DNA from: Solirubrobacter pauli
Lineage (GTDB): Bacteria > Actinomycetota > Thermoleophilia > Solirubrobacterales > Solirubrobacteraceae
Direction: 5' to 3'
DNA length: 64,000 bases
Assembly (NCBI RefSeq): GCF_003633755.1
Contig: NZ_RBIL01000002.1
Coordinates: forward strand, 1,612,001 to 1,676,000
The notes beneath the pieces are model-generated. The model was not told the DNA's origin and made no database searches. It saw only the letters and a program-made list of their open reading frames with translations. Shown piece by piece: positions 8,181 to 62,333 of this stretch; the first letter of the stretch is position 1, and every line of letters starts with the position of its first letter. The position numbers and the translations under genes are program-made.

Positions 8181-9466
8181 CAGGCGGCCAGCTTGGACTC
8201 GTCGCCCGCGACGCCCTGCACGGCGGCGCAGAACTTGTCCTCGTCCGGCCCGATGCCGGCCGCGGACAGGCGTCCCGGCGCCCACAGGTCGTCCACCAGC
8301 GAGCGCATGTCGTCCATCGTGACGGCGTCGATGCGCTCCATGACCTCGTCGGTCTCCAGCAGCGGCAGGCCGAACAGCAGCGAGCCGCCGAGGCGATGCA
8401 TGCGCGCGCCCGTCGACTCCATGCCGAGCACGACCCGCGCCTTGACGTTCTCGCGTGCACGCACGAGCTCCTCCTCAGTCGCCGGCTGCTCGCGCAGGCG
8501 CTCGAGCTCGTCGCTGACGACCTTCATCGCCTCGACGAGGTTGTCCGGACGGGTGCCGACGTACAGGCCGACCTGGCCCGTGTCGGCGTACTGCCCGGTG
8601 AACGAGTAGACGCTGTACGCCAGCCCGCGCTCCTCGCGCACGGCCTGGAAGAGCCGTGAGCTGGACAGGCCGCCGAAGATCGCGTCCAGCACGCGCGCGG
8701 CGAACCGGCGCTCGTCCCCGCGCTGCAGGCCGAGGCCGCCGAGCGTGACGTGCACCTGCTCGGTGTCCTTGCGCACGAAGCGCACGGTCGCCCGCGGGTC
8801 GGCCGGGGCGGGCTCGATGCCCGGCGCGGCCTCGATGCCGTCGTGCGTATGGGCGGTGCGCTGCGCGAGCTCGACGATCGCGTCGTGATCCACGGACCCG
8901 GCCGCGGCGATCACGACGTTGCCGGGCACGTAGCGGCGCTTGTGGAACTCGGCGATGACGTCGATCGGCGTGTCGCGGATCACCGGCGCGCGGCCGATGA
9001 TCGGCCGCCCGAGCGGGTGGTCGCCGAAGACGGCCTCGCCCAGGACGTCGAACACGGTGTCCTGGGGATCGTCCTCGTACATCGCGATCTCCTCGAGCAC
9101 GACCTCGCGCTCGGGATCGACGTCCTGGTAGGCGGGACGCCAGACCATGTCGGCCATGACGTCGAACGCCGCCGGCAGGTGCTGGTCGAGCATCCGCGCG
9201 TAGACCGCGGTGCTCTCCTTGTCCGTGCCGGCGTTCAGCTCGGCGCCCATGCCGTCGAAGAGCTTGTCGATCTCCGCCGAGGCGTAGCGATCGGTGCCCT
9301 TGAACAGCAGGTGCTCCAGGAAGTGGCTGAGCCCGGCCTCCGCGACGGATTCACCGCGCGAGCCGGTGTGCACGAAGAAGCCGAGGGCGGCGGACCGCAC
9401 GGAGGGCATGGCCTCCGTGACGACCCGCAGCCCGCTCTCGAGCTCCGTGATGCGATGGCCGGGCAA
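8180..9466 (-). CDS. M16 family zinc metallopeptidase (mitochondrial-processing-peptidase type)
   Basis: A 428-residue pitrilysin-clan peptidase with the inverted zinc motif HFLEH (H48, E51, H52) and the downstream Glu in VVLEEIAMYEDDP (about 125). The C-terminal half is the usual second, non-catalytic M16 repeat. Actinobacterial genomes often have this gene between pnp and dapB, as here, though its physiological substrate is unclear. No signal peptide is visible, so it is cytoplasmic. The start is TTG, 5 nt after the pnp stop, chosen because the opening HRITELESGLRVVTE aligns with the usual family N-terminus. No ribosome site is visible, so coupling to pnp is likely. Confidence 0.93.
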   Translation of the reverse strand: MPGHRITELESGLRVVTEAMPSVRSAALGFFVHTGSRGESVAEAGLSHFLEHLLFKGTDRYASAEIDKLFDGMGAELNAGTDKESTAVYARMLDQHLPAAFDVMADMVWRPAYQDVDPEREVVLEEIAMYEDDPQDTVFDVLGEAVFGDHPLGRPIIGRAPVIRDTPIDVIAEFHKRRYVPGNVVIAAAGSVDHDAIVELAQRTAHTHDGIEAAPGIEPAPADPRATVRFVRKDTEQVHVTLGGLGLQRGDERRFAARVLDAIFGGLSSSRLFQAVREERGLAYSVYSFTGQYADTGQVGLYVGTRPDNLVEAMKVVSDELERLREQPATEEELVRARENVKARVVLGMESTGARMHRLGGSLLFGLPLLETDEVMERIDAVTMDDMRSLVDDLWAPGRLSAAGIGPDEDKFCAAVQGVAGDESKLAA

Positions 9467-9471
9467 GTGGG

Positions 9472-11784
<2,313 letters not shown>

Positions 11785-55084: not shown

Positions 55085-55214
55085 GGCCCACCCGGCGCAT
55101 CGGGGATCTCCCTAGGAGCGGTGTTGAGCGACCTCCACGCTCATTTACCTCTAATCCGATCGGGTTTATGTATTTATCTCCCTCGTCCGTTTGCCATCGA
55201 GGGGGTCAACCATC
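55085..55214. promoter_or_regulatory. Divergent promoter region of secreted proteins
   Basis: The 130-nt gap holds the only AT-rich stretch nearby (55141-55180, with TTTATGTATTTATC), likely the start region of the M14 gene and perhaps of the divergent gene. No clear -35/-10 pair could be set. Confidence 0.4.
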
Positions 55215-58200
55215 TTGCGCACCCGCGCACTCGCGGCGTCCGCCGCCGTATTCCTGCTGTCCGCGAGCCCGGCGCTCGCGGCCGGCCCGCCCGACGAGAA
55301 GCTGCAGCCGTACGAGGCGACCGTGTCGCACGCGCAGGCCGGCATCGTCGCCGACTCGGGGATCGAGCTCGACCACGCCGGCTTCAAGGCCGGCGTCCTC
55401 GGCGAGCAGAAGCTCGAGATCGCCGTCACCAAGACCCAGGCCGCCGCGCTGGAGGCCCAGGGCGTCGAGCTGACCGCCCAGCAGCTCGACAAGCCGGGCG
55501 TCGTCGCCACCGGCGGCGACAGCCCCAACCCGTACTACGACGTCTTCCGCTCCTACTCGGAGCCCGGCGGCATCGCGGACGAGCTGCGCGCCGAGGCCGC
55601 CGCCAACAAGGACGTGGCCAAGGTCGTCGAGATCGGCAAGTCGCTGCTCGGCAAGCCGATCCTCGCCATCAAGATCACCGACGACGCGCGCAACGTCGCC
55701 GACGGCACGCGCCCGTCGGTGCTCTTCGGCGCCGTCAACCACGCCCGCGAGTGGATCGCGGCCGAGGTCGCCCGCCGCGAGGCGAAGTGGTTCCTCGAGC
55801 ACAAGCGGGACGCACGCGTCGCCGAGCTGCTCAAGACGACCGAGATCTGGGTGCTGCCCGTCTTCAACCCGGACGGCTACGACTACACGTTCACCTGCGG
55901 CACCGGCGCGGCGGTCGCGCTCTGCGGCCCGGGCGCGGCGAGCTCCAACCGCCTGTGGCGCAAGACGCTGCGCGACAACAACAACGACGGCATCTACGGC
56001 AACGCCGGCGACGGCGTCGACCCGAACCGCAACTTCCCGGAGCAGTGGGCGCTCGACAACGAGGGCTCCAGCCCGACGCCGTCGGCCGAGGACTACCGCG
56101 GCCCGTACGCGAACTCCGAGCCCGAGAACGCGGCGTACGACCGCTTCCTGAAGAAGATCAAGCCGGTCTACAACCTCAACTACCACTCGGCCGCGCAGCT
56201 GCTGAACGCCTCCTTCGGCTTCATCACCAACCGCCCGTCCGACGACGACACCCTCTCGCGCGCGCTCAGCGGCACCGACGGCGACGCCGCGGTCGACCCG
56301 TACACGCCGCAGCAGGCGTCCGAGCTCTACGTCACCCACGGTGAGACCGTCGACTGGGCGTACCTGCAGCACGGCACGATCGGCTTCACGCCCGAGCTGG
56401 ACACGGCCGCCACCGCGGGCGCGTCGGGCAGCTCGTTCGTCTTCCCGGACGACGAGACCAAGGTCCGCGCCGTCTTCGACAAGAACCTCGACCTGGCGCT
56501 GAACCTGGTCAACTCGGCGACGCACCCGGACCGGCCGTCGAACTTCACGCAGGACCCGGCGGAGTACCAGGTCAAGCCGACGGTCGACATCCAGCCGACC
56601 AAGTTCGACGTCTCCTACGGCGGCCCGCAGATCGTCGAGGCCGTCGTGCGCCGCTCGCTCGGCAACGTCGACGTCTCGGCCACGATCTCCGGCCCGGGCG
56701 GCACCTCGCGCTCGCAGCTGCTGCGCGCCACGCCCTACCTCGGCGGCGAGCGCTACGGCGACGTCCCGGGCACGTACTTCCAGCGCGTCCGCGTGACGCT
56801 GCCGGAGAACTGGAACACGGCCGCCGCGCCGCGGGTGCCGACGGTCGGTGACACGGTCGCCGTCACCGTCCGCGCGGGCGGGCAGCAGCAGCGCTTCTCC
56901 TACCGGATCGCCTCGACGCAGCAGGACAAGACCAAGAAGCGCGTGCTCGTGGTCGCGGCCGAGGACTACACCGGCACCTCGCCGAACCGCAAGGCCGGCT
57001 ACGCCACCGCGCCGCGCTACCTGCAGCAGCACGTGGACGCGCTGAAGGCCGCCGGGTACGAGGTCGACACGTTCAACACCGACGCGCCGCCGCTGAACGC
57101 CGCCGGCGTCGCGGGCCAGCGCAACCCCACGTTCCTCGGCGTCTTCTCGCACTTCGACGCCGTCGACTACTACACGGGCGACGACTACGTCCCGCAGGAG
57201 CCCGCTGAGACCAACCCGCGCTACCTGAGCACGGCGACGGCCTTCACCGGCTCCAACGTGGTCGCCTCGTGGGCGGTCAAGGGTTGGTTCGAGCTGCGCG
57301 ACTACCTCAACGAGGGCGGCAAGGCGGTCCTCGACGGGCGCAACGCCAACGTCACGTTCGCGTCCACCAGCACGAGCCTGACCGCGTACTCGAGCTTCCA
57401 GTTCTACGCGGACCCGCTGTACGGCTTCAACTACCCGCCCAACGGCGGCGGCGACGACGACCGTCCGGGCACGGCCTACCTGCGCCCGCACGACGTCAAC
57501 AACGACATCGAGCAGTACTTCTTCGGCGTCGGCTCGCGGGCCGGCGGTTACGGCTCGACCACCTACAACGCCGCGCCGGTCGGCCCGGTCGGGAACGGCA
57601 TCTTCGCCGGCGTGGCGCCGTTCAGCGTCGACACGGCGGCGGGCGACGACCCGAACACCGACGCGGCCGGCACCACCGCGGTCCCGCGCGCGAAGTCGGT
57701 CACGCGCCTGCGCACGCTGTCGAGCATCACCTCGCAGCAGCCACTGCGCCAGGAGCGCGCCGAGCTCGACGTCCAGACGACGCCGGCCCAGGCCGCCAAC
57801 GGCGGCGTGGCCGTGTCCACCCGCGACACGATCACGTTCGGCTTCGGCCTCGAGCAGGTCGACCAGGCGACGCGCGAGACGCTCGTGGCGCGTGCCTTCA
57901 GCTACCTGCTGCCGACCGACGCCGACACGACGGCTCCGGTGGGCGACTTCACCTACCCGGCGGCCAACGCCTCGATCGGCTCCAACAGCCCGGTCGACGC
58001 CGAGGTCCAGGGCTACGACGAGCGCGGTGACGTCAAGGAGGCCCGCTACTACGTCAACGGCACCCTGATCACGACCGACAGGTCGTTCCCGTTCCAGTTC
58101 CGCTACTGGCCGACGGCCGCGCAGTCGGGCACGACGCTCACGCTCAAGGCCGAGCTCGAGGACAAGGCGGGCAACGTCAAGGCGATCGAGCGCCCGGTGC

Positions 58201-58937
58201 GCATCGTCGCCGAGACGCGGCTCGTCGAGGCGCCCCTGCCGGCGAACGCGCCGACGCTCAGCGGGTCGCCGACGGTCGGCTCCGCGCTGACCGTGGTCAA
58301 CGGCGGCTTCCTCAACAACCCCGCCTCGACGACGGTGCAGTGGCTGCGTGACGGCGACGTGATCGCCGGCGCGTCGCAGTCGAGCTACACGCTCACCGCC
58401 GGTGACCTCGGGCACCTGGTGAGCGCCCGCATCACCGCCAGCAACACGGCGGGTGACGCGGACGCGACGACCAAGGGCCTGTACGTGTCCGCGGCGTCGA
58501 GCGGTGCGCAGGGTCCGCAGGGCCCCGCCGGCCCGACGGGTCCCGCGGGTCCGACCGGTGCCACCGGCGCGACGGGCGCCACCGGCCCCACGGGGGCGAC
58601 GGGTGCCACCGGCCCCGCGGGTCCGACCGGCGCCACCGGCCCGGCCGGCCCGAAGGGTGACAAGGGCGAGAAGGGCGACACGCCGAACGTGCGCGTCACC
58701 TGCGACCTGTCCTCGGACGGACGCTCGATCGTCTGCACGATCACGGCGGTCTCCCCCGCGACGAGCAGCGCGAAGCTGTCCGGCACGGCGAAGATCTCCG
58801 GCGCGAAGACCACGAAGCGCTGGAGCGGCAAGGGCCGCGTGAAGGTCACGCTGAAGTCGGCCAAGCGCCTCAAGAGGGCGCCCAAGGTCGTCATCAAGGT
58901 CGGCGAGACCTCGAAGACGGTCCAGGCCAAGCGGTAG
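55215..58937 (+). CDS. Secreted M14 zinc carboxypeptidase with collagen-like tail
   Basis: A 1240-residue exported protein. The signal peptide is [20 protein letters not shown]. The M14 domain has zinc ligands H176 and E179 (NHAREW) and H324 (NYHSAAQ), with the catalytic Glu E394 in GFTPELDT. Several beta-rich modules follow. An Ig-like domain at about 1015-1090 ([18 protein letters not shown]) is followed by Gly-x-y triplets ([16 protein letters not shown] type, about 1097-1160) like bacterial collagen. A basic C-terminus ends it. TTG 55215 is chosen for AGGGGG 9 nt upstream; TTG 55191 is possible. It probably degrades extracellular peptides while displayed on or released from the surface. 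Confidence 0.93.
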
Positions 58938-59096
58938 CTAGCTGCGCGGGCGGAAGCTCGCGTAGGCCCCGGAGTGGAACGCGGCGAAGGTCTTCGCCGC
59001 GTCCGGGGTCATCCCGAGATGCACGAGGTGGCGTGCCGCACCGCGATCGTCGAGCGGCGCGCCCTTCGGGTCTTTGTCCTGCTGGGGCTCCGTCAT
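58938..59096 (-). CDS. Small protein, 52 aa, DAxxTFxxFHxG family (copy 1)
   Basis: A short ORF opening MTEPQQDKDPKGAPLDDRGA with an acidic, Pro/Gln-rich start and a helical second half containing MTPDAAKTFAAFHSG (29-43). The second copy at 61812-61967 has MSLDALRTFLDFHTG at the same place: 8 of 15 positions are identical and 3 more similar. The stop directly abuts the stop of the M14 gene, and the start is divergent from the B12-sensor gene. No ribosome-binding site is visible upstream. I do not recognise the family. The conserved spacing in two separate loci is the evidence that it is real. Confidence 0.72.
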   Translation of the reverse strand: MTEPQQDKDPKGAPLDDRGAARHLVHLGMTPDAAKTFAAFHSGAYASFRPRS

Positions 59097-59144
59097 GTTT
59101 GTGACGTTACGGTGAACCGCTTCGGGAGGACACTGGCCAGAAGT

Positions 59145-59161
59145 CCGGAGTTATATTCCGG
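59145..59161. promoter_or_regulatory. -10 element flanked by an inverted repeat at the B12-sensor gene
   Basis: TTATAT (59151-59156) is a good -10 only 9 nt before the GTG, so the transcript would be nearly leaderless. It is flanked by CCGGA (59145-59149) and TCCGG (59157-59161), a perfect dyad that would place a repressor on the promoter. No clear -35 is seen. Confidence 0.5.
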
Positions 59162-59165
59162 GCGC

Positions 59166-59816
59166 GTGAGCCTGGACGAGCATCGCACCGACTTCCTCGA
59201 TGCCCTGCTGGCCCGGGATTCCGCGCGTGCCCGCGGGGTGGTGGAAGCGGCACTGGAGAACGGCACCCCGGTGCCGGACCTCTACCTGTCCGTGCTGGCG
59301 CCGGCGCTGCGTGAAGTCGGCCACCGCTGGGCGATGGGCGAGCTCAACGTCGCCGAGGAGCACTACGCGACCGCGATCGCGCAGTCGATCCTCGACGGGC
59401 TCTCGCGCCGGCTGCCGCGGGCGGAGCGGGACGGACGGCTCGCGGTGGTCACCGGCACGCCCGGTGAGCAGCACGCGCTCGGCGCGCGCATGGTCGGCGA
59501 CTTCCTCGAAGCGGACGGGTGGGAGGTGATCCAGCTCGGCCCCGGTGTGCCCGCCGAGGATCTGTTCGCGCTGGTCGAGCGCGAGCAGCCGGACCTGGTC
59601 GCGCTGTCGACCGCGACGGCCGGAGCGCTGGACGGTGTCGCCGAGGTCCTGGGCGGCCTCGCGCGGCTTTCGCCACGCCCGTTCGTCGTCGCGGGCGGGC
59701 AGGTGTGGACCGCGTCCACCCGTTCGACGGCGCTGGAGCTGGGGGCCGATCACGTCGAGCAGGACCCGCGGCAGCTCGTCGCCTACCTGTACGAGCGGAT
59801 CCCGCCACCCGGTTGA
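59166..59816 (+). CDS. Stand-alone cobalamin-binding sensor (CarH-like light/B12 domain)
   Basis: A 216-residue soluble protein. The N-terminal half is the helical B12-binding cap (Met-synthase-like), with W55 followed after nine residues by E65-H66 (RWAMGELNVAEEH). That W-x9-EH is the signature of CarH-type adenosylcobalamin photoreceptors. The C-terminal half is the Rossmann B12-binding domain with E101-x-H103-x-x-G106, in which His should coordinate cobalt. No MerR DNA-binding domain is fused, so it must signal through a partner. GTG 59166 has no ribosome site and sits 9 nt after a -10, consistent with leaderless expression. Confidence 0.88.
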   Translation: MSLDEHRTDFLDALLARDSARARGVVEAALENGTPVPDLYLSVLAPALREVGHRWAMGELNVAEEHYATAIAQSILDGLSRRLPRAERDGRLAVVTGTPGEQHALGARMVGDFLEADGWEVIQLGPGVPAEDLFALVEREQPDLVALSTATAGALDGVAEVLGGLARLSPRPFVVAGGQVWTASTRSTALELGADHVEQDPRQLVAYLYERIPPPG

Positions 59817-59849
59817 ATCGGGTGTGGATGGATATGGACATCCGTCCGC

Positions 59850-59878
59850 TTGTCTCACCTCTGACTCATCTGTAGCGT
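59850..59878 (+). promoter_or_regulatory. Promoter of the M1 peptidase gene
   Basis: TTGTCT (59850-59855), a 17-nt spacer and TAGCGT (59873-59878) match a housekeeping promoter (TTGnnn, TAnnnT). The start codon is 52 nt beyond the -10. Confidence 0.5.
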
Positions 59879-59930
59879 CGTGACCCTCTGGGCGTGCGGG
59901 GGTGCACGCATCCACGGATGGAGGGTTTGT

Positions 59931-61784
59931 ATGAGGGGTCGGCCTTTGGCCATCGTCGGAGGACTGCTGGCAGGCTTGGCGCTCAGCGCGCCGGCCTACG
60001 CGCAGCAGTTCAGCCCGGGCTCGCGGAGCCTCGGCGACCGTCTGATGCCCGCACTCGGCAACGGCGGCTACGACACGCTGCACTACACGAACACGTTCAA
60101 GTACGACCCCGCGGCGAACACGATGCTGCCGGGCTCGCAGACCGAGATCACGATCAAGGCGACGCAGAACCTGAGCGAGCTCGCGCTCGACCTGCGCGCG
60201 TACACGGTCTCCGAAGCCACGATCGACGGCATCGCCGCGGGCGTCGCGCGCGTGGGTGACAAGCTCGTCATCACACCGGCCGCCGGCATCGTCAACGGCC
60301 GCGAGTTCAAGCTGCTGATCAAGTTCTCCGGCACGCCGCTGGAGATCCAGGACCCCGACGGGTCGTTCGAGGGCTGGTCGCGGATCCCGACCGGTGGCTT
60401 CGTGGTCAACGAGCCGCAGGGCGCGATGGGGTGGTTCCCGTCGAACAACTACCCGTCCGACAAGGCGACGTACGACTTCTTCGTCACGATCCCGGCGACG
60501 CACACGTCGATGGCCAACGGCGAGCTCGCCGCGCGTACCGACAACGGCGACGGCACCACCACCTGGCACTGGTCGCTCGACTACCCGATGGCCACGTACC
60601 TGACGACGGCGACGGTCGGCGTGTTCGACTACCGCGAGTGGACCGGCTCGACCGCCAAGGGCAAGAGCGGCGACCCGCTGAAGGTGTACGACGCCTTCGA
60701 GGCCGCGCTCACCGAGGCGCAGCGCACCACGGCGCGCAACACCGCCAACCGCCAGGACGAGATCATCACGTGGATGGCCGGCCTGATCGGCCGCCCGTAC
60801 CCGTACGAGTCCCACGGCACGGTCCTGCACCGCACCTCGCTCGGCTACGCCCTCGAGTCGCAGACCAAGTCGCACTTCTCCGGCTCCTCGATCAACGTGG
60901 GCACCCTCGCGCACGAGATCGCGCATCAGTGGTTCGGCGACAGCGTCGGCCCGCAGACGTGGGAGGAGATCTGGTTCAACGAGGGCTGGGCCACCTGGTG
61001 GGCCTGGCACTTCGCGAACAAGCTCAACGGCAGCGCGACCACGACGGCGCAGCAGTTCACCAGCAACTACAACTCGACGTCGCAGCCCACGCGCTGGAAC
61101 GTCGCGCCGGCGGCGCTGGCGAGCGGGGCGAACCTGTTCGACACGTTCCCGGTCTACACGCGCCCGGCGCTGATGCTCGAGGCCTACCGGCAGATCGTCG
61201 GCGACGCCGCGTTCTACGGCTTCCAGCGCGCCCTGCTCGACGAGCACGGCTACGCGGACATCAACATCAACGAGTTCATCGCACTCGCCAAGAAGGTCGC
61301 GCAGCAGCAGGCGGGCTTCGAGGCGTCGAACCTGGCCAAGCTCGACACGTTCTTCACCCAGTGGCTGAAGACCCCGAGCAAGCCGACGATGACCCCGCAG
61401 GCGTTCTTCGCGAGCACGCCGGCCCCGGGGACGGTGTCCGGCACCGTGCCCGCGACGCTGGCGCTCACCCTGGGCGCGGTCCCGAGCCTCGGCTCGTTCC
61501 AGCCGGGCGTCGACCGCGAGTACACGGCCTCGACGAAGGCGACCGTCGTCAGCACCGCGGGCGACGCGACGCTGGCGGTCAGCGACCCCGGCCGCCTCAC
61601 CAACGGCGCGTTCACGCTGCCGGAGCCGCTGCGCGTCGAGCTCGGCAAGACGAGCTGGGCCGGCCCGGTCTCCAACGAGGAGGTCACCGTGACCTTCAAG
61701 CAGCTCATCAAGGCGACCGACGCCCTGCGGACCGGCGCCTACTCCAAGACGCTGACGTTCACGCTGTCGACGACCACGCCCTAG
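59931..61784 (+). CDS. Secreted M1-family metallopeptidase
   Basis: A 617-residue exported aminopeptidase-N-type peptidase. The signal peptide is MRGRPLAIVGGLLAGLALSA..PAYA. An N-terminal beta-domain follows, then the gluzincin core with H328-E-x-x-H332 (LAHEIAHQWFGDSVG) and the third ligand E351 (WFNEGWATWW). The family exopeptidase motif GxMEN is not clearly visible: QGAMGWFPSN occupies that region, so substrate recognition may differ. A C-terminal beta-domain (about 500-617) ends the protein. ATG 59931 has GGAGGG 5 nt upstream. Confidence 0.93.
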   Translation: MRGRPLAIVGGLLAGLALSAPAYAQQFSPGSRSLGDRLMPALGNGGYDTLHYTNTFKYDPAANTMLPGSQTEITIKATQNLSELALDLRAYTVSEATIDGIAAGVARVGDKLVITPAAGIVNGREFKLLIKFSGTPLEIQDPDGSFEGWSRIPTGGFVVNEPQGAMGWFPSNNYPSDKATYDFFVTIPATHTSMANGELAARTDNGDGTTTWHWSLDYPMATYLTTATVGVFDYREWTGSTAKGKSGDPLKVYDAFEAALTEAQRTTARNTANRQDEIITWMAGLIGRPYPYESHGTVLHRTSLGYALESQTKSHFSGSSINVGTLAHEIAHQWFGDSVGPQTWEEIWFNEGWATWWAWHFANKLNGSATTTAQQFTSNYNSTSQPTRWNVAPAALASGANLFDTFPVYTRPALMLEAYRQIVGDAAFYGFQRALLDEHGYADININEFIALAKKVAQQQAGFEASNLAKLDTFFTQWLKTPSKPTMTPQAFFASTPAPGTVSGTVPATLALTLGAVPSLGSFQPGVDREYTASTKATVVSTAGDATLAVSDPGRLTNGAFTLPEPLRVELGKTSWAGPVSNEEVTVTFKQLIKATDALRTGAYSKTLTFTLSTTTP

Positions 61785-61811
61785 GGATGCGCTGAGCCTG
61801 CGCCGCGGCCC

Positions 61812-61967
61812 CTACTCGGCGGGGTCGCGGCGCAGCGCGCGCCTGCCCGTGTGGAAGTCCAAGAACGTCCGCAAGGCGTCGAGGCTCATCTTCGTCAGCT
61901 CCGCGAGGCGCTCGGCATCGAGGTCGTCCTGCGGGGTGCCGTCCGGCTGGGGCTTCGGGGCGTCCAT
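61812..61967 (-). CDS. Small protein, 51 aa, DAxxTFxxFHxG family (copy 2)
   Basis: A short ORF opening MDAPKPQPDGTPQDDLDAER, again acidic and Pro-rich at the start, with MSLDALRTFLDFHTG (27-41) in the helical second half and a basic end (GRRALRRDPAE). It is a paralogue of the gene at 58938-59096. Like that copy it lies tail-to-tail with a secreted metallopeptidase (27 nt from the M1 stop) and is divergent from a small plus-strand gene. No strong ribosome site precedes the ATG. Function unknown. Confidence 0.72.
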   Translation of the reverse strand: MDAPKPQPDGTPQDDLDAERLAELTKMSLDALRTFLDFHTGRRALRRDPAE

Positions 61968-62018
61968 GTGCCCGGGTAATCGGCCGTTCCGTCCGAACCG
62001 CCGAATAGGTTCGCCCCC

Positions 62019-62333
62019 GTGGCCGCGATGACCATGTGCCCGCAGTGCGGGTCCACCTTCCTGCAGCCCTTGCGCTGCGAGGCCAAGGGCTCCGACGTCC
62101 TGCTCGTCGAGCTGCGCTGCTCCGAGTGCCAGACGTGGACCAAGGCGCCGCACACGCGCGCCGACATGAAGGAGCTGGACCGCCAGCAGGCCGAGTTCCG
62201 CGCCACGATCGTCGACGGCTACGAGCGCTCGGTCGCCGAGAGCATGGAGGCGCTCGCCACCTGCTTCGGGCACGCGCTCGAGCTCGACCTGGTCACGGCC
62301 GACGACTTTCGGCCGCGCACAGCCTCGGCCTAG
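62019..62333 (+). CDS. Small zinc-ribbon protein
   Basis: A 104-residue soluble protein. Residues 7-37 form a zinc ribbon with C7, C10 (MCPQCG) and C34, C37 (RCSECQ); C20 lies between. The rest is helical (RADMKELDRQQAEFRATIVD). The start is GTG 62019, or ATG 62028 or 62034. It is divergent from the second small-protein gene, 51 nt away. It could bind nucleic acid or a protein partner; no family is assigned. Confidence 0.75.
   Translation: MAAMTMCPQCGSTFLQPLRCEAKGSDVLLVELRCSECQTWTKAPHTRADMKELDRQQAEFRATIVDGYERSVAESMEALATCFGHALELDLVTADDFRPRTASA

What the first reader, a model, noticed from the sequence alone, without database searches (positions are those of the whole stretch)
58938..61967. 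Two paralogous small proteins, each tail-to-tail with a secreted metallopeptidase
ORFs of 52 aa (58938-59096) and 51 aa (61812-61967) share an acidic Pro-rich start and the motif M[ST]xDAxx-TFxxFH[ST]G at the same position. Both lie on the minus strand, convergent with a secreted metallopeptidase (M14 with 0 nt between stops; M1 with 27 nt) and divergent from a small regulatory-type gene. Neither has a visible ribosome site. This repeated layout suggests a small-protein family tied to, or copied with, these loci. I know of no described family with this motif. A functional link to the peptidases is inference from position only.
Basis: partly seen in the sequence, partly recalled or inferred. 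Interest (0 to 1): 0.72.

Follow-up and report, generated by a model that had tools for sequence, protein, structure and literature searches.

The report
Solirubrobacter-only twin small-protein genes
Two related genes for proteins of about 50 amino acids are real and conserved, but were found only in the soil-bacterium genus Solirubrobacter; they stay next to two sensor-like genes rather than the peptidases, and their function is unknown.

Summary
Both ORFs (smA 58938-59096, 52 aa; smB 61812-61967, 51 aa; minus strand) exist as described. They recur side by side in all 7 Solirubrobacter genomes held (6 species), are true paralogues (profile-profile E 6e-14) and evolve as coding sequence (dN/dS 0.16 and 0.51 in the closest pairs; in 19 of 20 pairwise tests at most 1 of 2000 shuffles kept the protein as well). 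Nothing convincing was found outside the genus, and no Pfam, NCBIfam or PHROGs family matches. The peptidase link fails: M14 is not beside smA in two species, M1 is not beside smB in two others, and both peptidases have relatives elsewhere without a small gene. The promoter-side neighbour is invariant: smA always diverges from a CarH-type B12-binding photosensor module lacking a DNA-binding domain, smB from a Zn-ribbon protein. The missing ribosome site is explained, for smA at least, by a probable leaderless promoter (invariant TANCGT 6-8 nt before ATG). The proteins probably form an acidic tail plus a helical hairpin and act as intracellular interaction modules (inference, about 0.3).

The parts
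58938..59096 (-). smA: 52-aa small protein MTEPQQDKDPKGAPLDDRGAARHLVHLGMTPDAAKTFAAFHSGAYASFRPRS
   Evidence: ORF; orthologues in 6 Solirubrobacter species, frameshifted in S. deserti; coding-type substitution
61812..61967 (-). smB: 51-aa paralogue MDAPKPQPDGTPQDDLDAERLAELTKMSLDALRTFLDFHTGRRALRRDPAE
   Evidence: ORF; orthologues in 6 species; homologous to smA; the G137 copy has an AGGAGG before ATG
59097..59165 (.). 69-nt divergent promoter region smA / B12 gene. smA -10-like TAACGT ends 7 nt before ATG; B12 -10-like TATATT lies just before its GTG: both fit leaderless starts
   Evidence: TANCGT invariant in 6 of 6 species; a TANNNT hexamer at that spacing precedes 0.9% of ATGs in the window
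59166..59816 (+). Stand-alone CarH-type B12-binding photosensor module (B12-binding_2 + B12-binding, no HTH), invariant divergent neighbour of smA
   Evidence: Pfam 4e-20 / 7e-15; NCBIfam CarH 2e-23, below cut-off; Wx9EH and ExHxxG in all 6 species
61968..62018 (.). 51-nt divergent promoter region smB / Zn-ribbon gene (about 75-90 nt in other species)
   Evidence: alignment of 6 species
62019..62333 (+). 104-aa Zn-ribbon + helical protein, invariant divergent neighbour of smB; relatives in 29 of 54 genera of the order
55191..58937 (+). Secreted M14 carboxypeptidase with Big_7 and collagen-like repeats; tail-to-tail with smA here, not at this locus in 2 of 6 species
59880..61784 (+). Secreted M1 peptidase; tail-to-tail with smB here, not at this locus in 2 of 6 species

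Best explanation
smA and smB are a genuine family of intracellular microproteins found only in Solirubrobacter, produced by one ancient duplication. smA, and probably smB, is transcribed as a leaderless mRNA from a divergent promoter region shared with a regulator-like gene (a DNA-binding-free CarH-type B12 sensor for smA, a Zn-ribbon protein for smB). Each protein has a flexible acidic/Pro-rich N-terminus and one two-helix hairpin around a conserved GM[ST]xDAxxT[FY]xxF[HVL][ST]G-like signature. Most likely the hairpin docks on an intracellular protein partner, so the protein works as a small adaptor or modulator. The adjacent peptidases are incidental convergent neighbours. Shown: existence, paralogy, purifying selection, restriction to the genus within what was searched, invariant promoter-side neighbours, variable peptidase side. 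Inferred: leaderless expression (about 0.8 for smA, 0.5 for smB), hairpin fold (0.7), adaptor role (0.3).
For: Both genes in 7 of 7 genus genomes. Homology to each other E 6e-14. Coding-type substitution: 19 of 20 pairwise tests at most 1 of 2000 shuffles, the other 27 of 2000; dN/dS 0.16 (smA) and 0.51 (smB) for the nearest species. B12 and Zn-ribbon neighbours in 6 of 6 species against peptidases in 4 of 6 each. Invariant TANCGT 6-8 nt before the smA ATG against 0.9% background. Leaderless mRNAs make up about a quarter of mycobacterial transcripts and encode many small proteins (PMC4633059). AlphaFold2: helices 17-26 and 31-42, pLDDT about 86 over residues 21-40, ends low.
Against: No expression data. 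smA is frameshifted in S. deserti CPCC 204708 (same lesion in two records of that strain), so it is not essential everywhere. smB promoter elements do not fit TANNNT. Nothing identifies a binding partner; pTM is 0.43 with 5 sequences. The constant divergent neighbour may only reflect a shared promoter region that tolerates no insertion.
Confidence: 0.6

Rival explanations
1. smA is the output or stabilising partner of the divergently encoded B12 photosensor module (and smB of the Zn-ribbon protein): light or B12 state controls binding of the small protein.
For: smA-B12 and smB-ZnR head-to-head in 6 of 6 species while the other side changes; the B12 protein keeps Wx9EH and ExHxxG but has no output domain; B12-binding co-regulators acting on a separate transcription factor are known (SAerR/LAerR with CrtJ, PMC9144470, abstract seen).
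Against: B12 and ZnR homologues outside the genus have no such small gene beside them; smA is broken in S. deserti while its B12 gene is intact; two paralogues would need two unrelated partners.
Confidence: 0.1
2. The small proteins serve the adjacent secreted peptidases (inhibitor, chaperone or regulator).
For: Tail-to-tail adjacency in the window.
Against: Adjacency absent in 2 of 6 species for each peptidase; M14 and M1 are unrelated; relatives of each peptidase elsewhere without a small gene; no signal peptide is visible in the small proteins while the peptidases are secreted.
Confidence: 0.03
3. Not genes: chance ORFs in 72% GC DNA.
For: Long open frames are cheap at this GC; no Shine-Dalgarno in this genome.
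Against: Protein-level conservation across 6 species, coding-type substitutions, paralogy, a Shine-Dalgarno in G137 smB.
Confidence: 0.03
4. The family arose as a broken-off C-terminal helical hairpin of a QOR2/NmrA-like SDR protein and may still bind as that hairpin does.
For: The genus profile weakly hits the C-terminus of such a protein (G000:C1:508260, E 0.07; EYTNGLVRATGMPEPVAAGYATFGTGARLG); hhalign score 16.25 reached by 8 of 600 column shuffles.
Against: hhalign probability only 1.1%; target picked after the fact; such E-values are expected by chance over the genomes searched.
Confidence: 0.07

Closest known systems
Leaderless small proteins of mycobacteria (PMC4633059)
   Same: Small, no Shine-Dalgarno, start probably at the transcript 5' end, actinobacterial, lineage-restricted
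   Different: Translation is supported experimentally there and only inferred here; those are many unrelated ORFs, this is one paralogous family conserved across a genus
CarH / light-responsive cobalamin-binding domains (PMC11796333)
   Same: The divergent neighbour of smA keeps GxxW, EH, the B12-ligating His and GxxxP in this genome
   Different: No MerR DNA-binding domain; smA itself is not a B12 protein
Small single-motif RsiG anti-sigma proteins of Thermoleophilia (PMC8325347)
   Same: Small helical regulatory proteins in the same class of bacteria
   Different: smA/smB are predicted as a short hairpin, not a long coiled-coil helix; no resemblance to the RsiG c-di-GMP motif was noticed by eye (no formal comparison made)

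Membership tests
Any Pfam / NCBIfam / PHROGs family | profile match above the curated cut-off (or a significant E-value) | tested here: not met
   none; best Pfam E 0.024-0.17, not significant
Leaderless gene | transcription start at the A of ATG | not testable with these tools
   needs TSS mapping; a -10-like hexamer at the right spacing is present for smA
Leaderless gene | no Shine-Dalgarno before the start | tested here: met
   read by eye: none before smA or smB in this genome; exceptions among orthologues: G137 smB (AGGAGG), and G137 smA has GAGGGA directly at the start
CarH-type photosensor module (neighbour) | Wx9EH and B12-ligating ExHxxG | tested here: met
   6 of 6 species
CarH repressor (neighbour) | N-terminal MerR HTH; NCBIfam cut-off 400 bits | tested here: not met
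   83 bits, aligned to CarH positions 85-270 only
Peptidase-linked small protein | conserved adjacency to peptidase genes | tested here: not met
QOR2/NmrA-like SDR fragment | significant profile-profile match | tested here: inconclusive

The most novel reading that the evidence does not exclude
smA is the missing output partner of a CarH-type B12 photoreceptor that lacks a DNA-binding domain, giving a two-gene, light-responsive adaptor switch; smB is the duplicate re-wired to a Zn-ribbon protein.
Probability: 0.07. Interest if true: 0.65.

Novelty: new member of a known kind. Interest (0 to 1): 0.35.

Why it matters
It adds an undescribed, genus-restricted microprotein family with clear selection signals in an understudied class, and shows that the fixed neighbour of each copy is the promoter-side sensor-like gene, not the peptidase. 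This gives a concrete pair (smA plus an HTH-less B12 photosensor) to test for an interaction.

Tried and rejected
Peptidase link: rejected by synteny and peptidase relatives elsewhere. First hits in G056 and G107 were unrelated frames. Profile hits outside the genus with E 0.003-0.1: most of those were inspected; they lie in unrelated longer frames, or could not be located because the locus was cut short; none is convincing. PDB sequence and fold searches gave no significant match (best fold RuvA domain III, E 4.5, not meaningful). Divergent small ORFs beside B12/ZnR homologues in other genera: no ORF resembling the family was seen. SDR-fragment origin: weak lead only. Rfam on Zn-ribbon homologue loci with apparent in-frame stops: nothing; in those read out the stop sits at the C-terminal end of the protein.

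Full report
Observation. Both ORFs are at the stated coordinates and strand, tail-to-tail with an M14 gene (0 nt) and an M1 gene (27 nt), and divergent from a B12-binding-domain gene and a Zn-ribbon gene. The two proteins align over 40 residues at 43% identity. In their own genome each finds the other at E about 0.012 and nothing better apart from itself.

Conservation. A search of 146 genomes of the family found both genes in all six other genomes of the genus, side by side on one contig. The smA and smB orthologue sets match each other with hhalign E 6e-14, probability 98%, so they are paralogues. Over all eleven sequences the aligned invariant positions are M1, P10, M29, G43 and R49 of smA, with D32, T36 and F40 nearly invariant. 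Profile searches of 232 genomes of the order and a 399-genome sample of the class, and a scan of a collection of one genome for each of 84,980 species, found nothing convincing outside Solirubrobacter. The last scan used a single peptide pattern and returned three loci, so it is the least sensitive. Restriction to the genus therefore means 'in what was searched'.

Coding status. For all pairs, substitutions were redistributed among like bases. In 19 of 20 comparisons at most 1 of 2000 shuffles preserved the protein as well as observed; the other gave 27 of 2000. The 20 pairs are not independent. dN/dS is 0.16 (smA) and 0.51 (smB) for the closest species; dS is likely underestimated at 72% GC, so ratios for distant pairs (up to 1.1) are not reliable. 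In G137 the smB start is preceded by AGGAGG, independent support for translation there. In CPCC 204708 smA carries a frameshift after ..NAAKT, seen in two records of that strain; the start region and neighbours are kept. smA is therefore either lost in that lineage or mis-sequenced twice.

No ribosome site. In smA the clearest invariant element near the start is TANCGT, ending 6-8 nt before the ATG in all six species. TANNNT at that spacing precedes 0.9% of ATGs in the window. This is what a leaderless actinobacterial promoter is expected to look like; [quoted passage not shown] That Solirubrobacter does the same is inference. The divergent B12 and Zn-ribbon genes also have TANNNT-like elements just before their GTG starts in this genome (sequence). 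For smB the conserved GCCGATnACC does not fit the consensus, so its leaderless status is less certain.

Neighbours. Within the genus the promoter-side neighbour never changes: smA-B12 and smB-ZnR are head-to-head in 6 of 6 species. The terminator side changes. In G138 and G133/G134 a codirectional secreted-protein gene replaces M14. In G136 and G137 a GNAT-like acetyltransferase (my reading of the sequence) lies where M1 is in the others. M1 and M14 relatives exist elsewhere in the genomes (M14 in all seven, M1 beyond the locus in five; in G133/G134 only the locus copy passed the cut-off), while the profile finds only the two small genes. The peptidase association is therefore incidental. The constancy of the head-to-head pairs may mean function, or merely that a short double promoter tolerates no insertion.

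The B12 neighbour is a CarH-type sensing module: B12-binding_2 plus B12-binding, matching the NCBIfam CarH model from position 85 on, with no DNA-binding part. It keeps Wx9EH and ExHxxG in all six species. The published light-response signature is GxxW, EH, GxxH, GxxxP (PMC11796333). The GxxH glycine is kept in own, G135, G138 and G134 but not in G136 and G137. The Zn-ribbon neighbour belongs to a family present in 29 of 54 genera of the order. No small gene of this family was found beside either outside the genus, so the small genes are most simply an addition made in the Solirubrobacter lineage.

Structure and mechanism. With no signal peptide or catalytic signature visible and too few helices for a usual DNA-binding fold, an intracellular protein-protein interaction module is the most likely role. 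That step is inference. A weak resemblance to the C-terminal hairpin of a QOR2/NmrA-like SDR was followed and left open (8 of 600 shuffles score as high; hhalign probability 1.1%).

Verdict. The proposed peptidase tie is not supported. Interest is moderate, because nothing yet shows what the proteins do.

Noticed in passing
59166-59816 +: Stand-alone CarH-type B12 photosensor module without DNA-binding domain, conserved at this locus in all Solirubrobacter genomes held.
   Followed up: partly
62019-62333 +: 104-aa Zn-ribbon plus helical C-terminus (relatives typically end in LIxPDDF) with no matching Pfam or NCBIfam model; relatives in 67 of 232 genomes of the order.
   Followed up: partly
55191-58937 +: M14 carboxypeptidase with a C-terminal Big_7 domain and a collagen-like GXY repeat block.
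   Followed up: no
L030 around 11532-11690 and L031 around 8290-8446: smA of S. deserti CPCC 204708 carries a frameshift that joins its frame to the downstream secreted-protein gene; identical in two records of the strain.
   Followed up: partly
61968-62018: The smB-ZnR intergenic region is about 25-30 nt shorter in this genome and S. phytolaccae than in the other four species.
   Followed up: no
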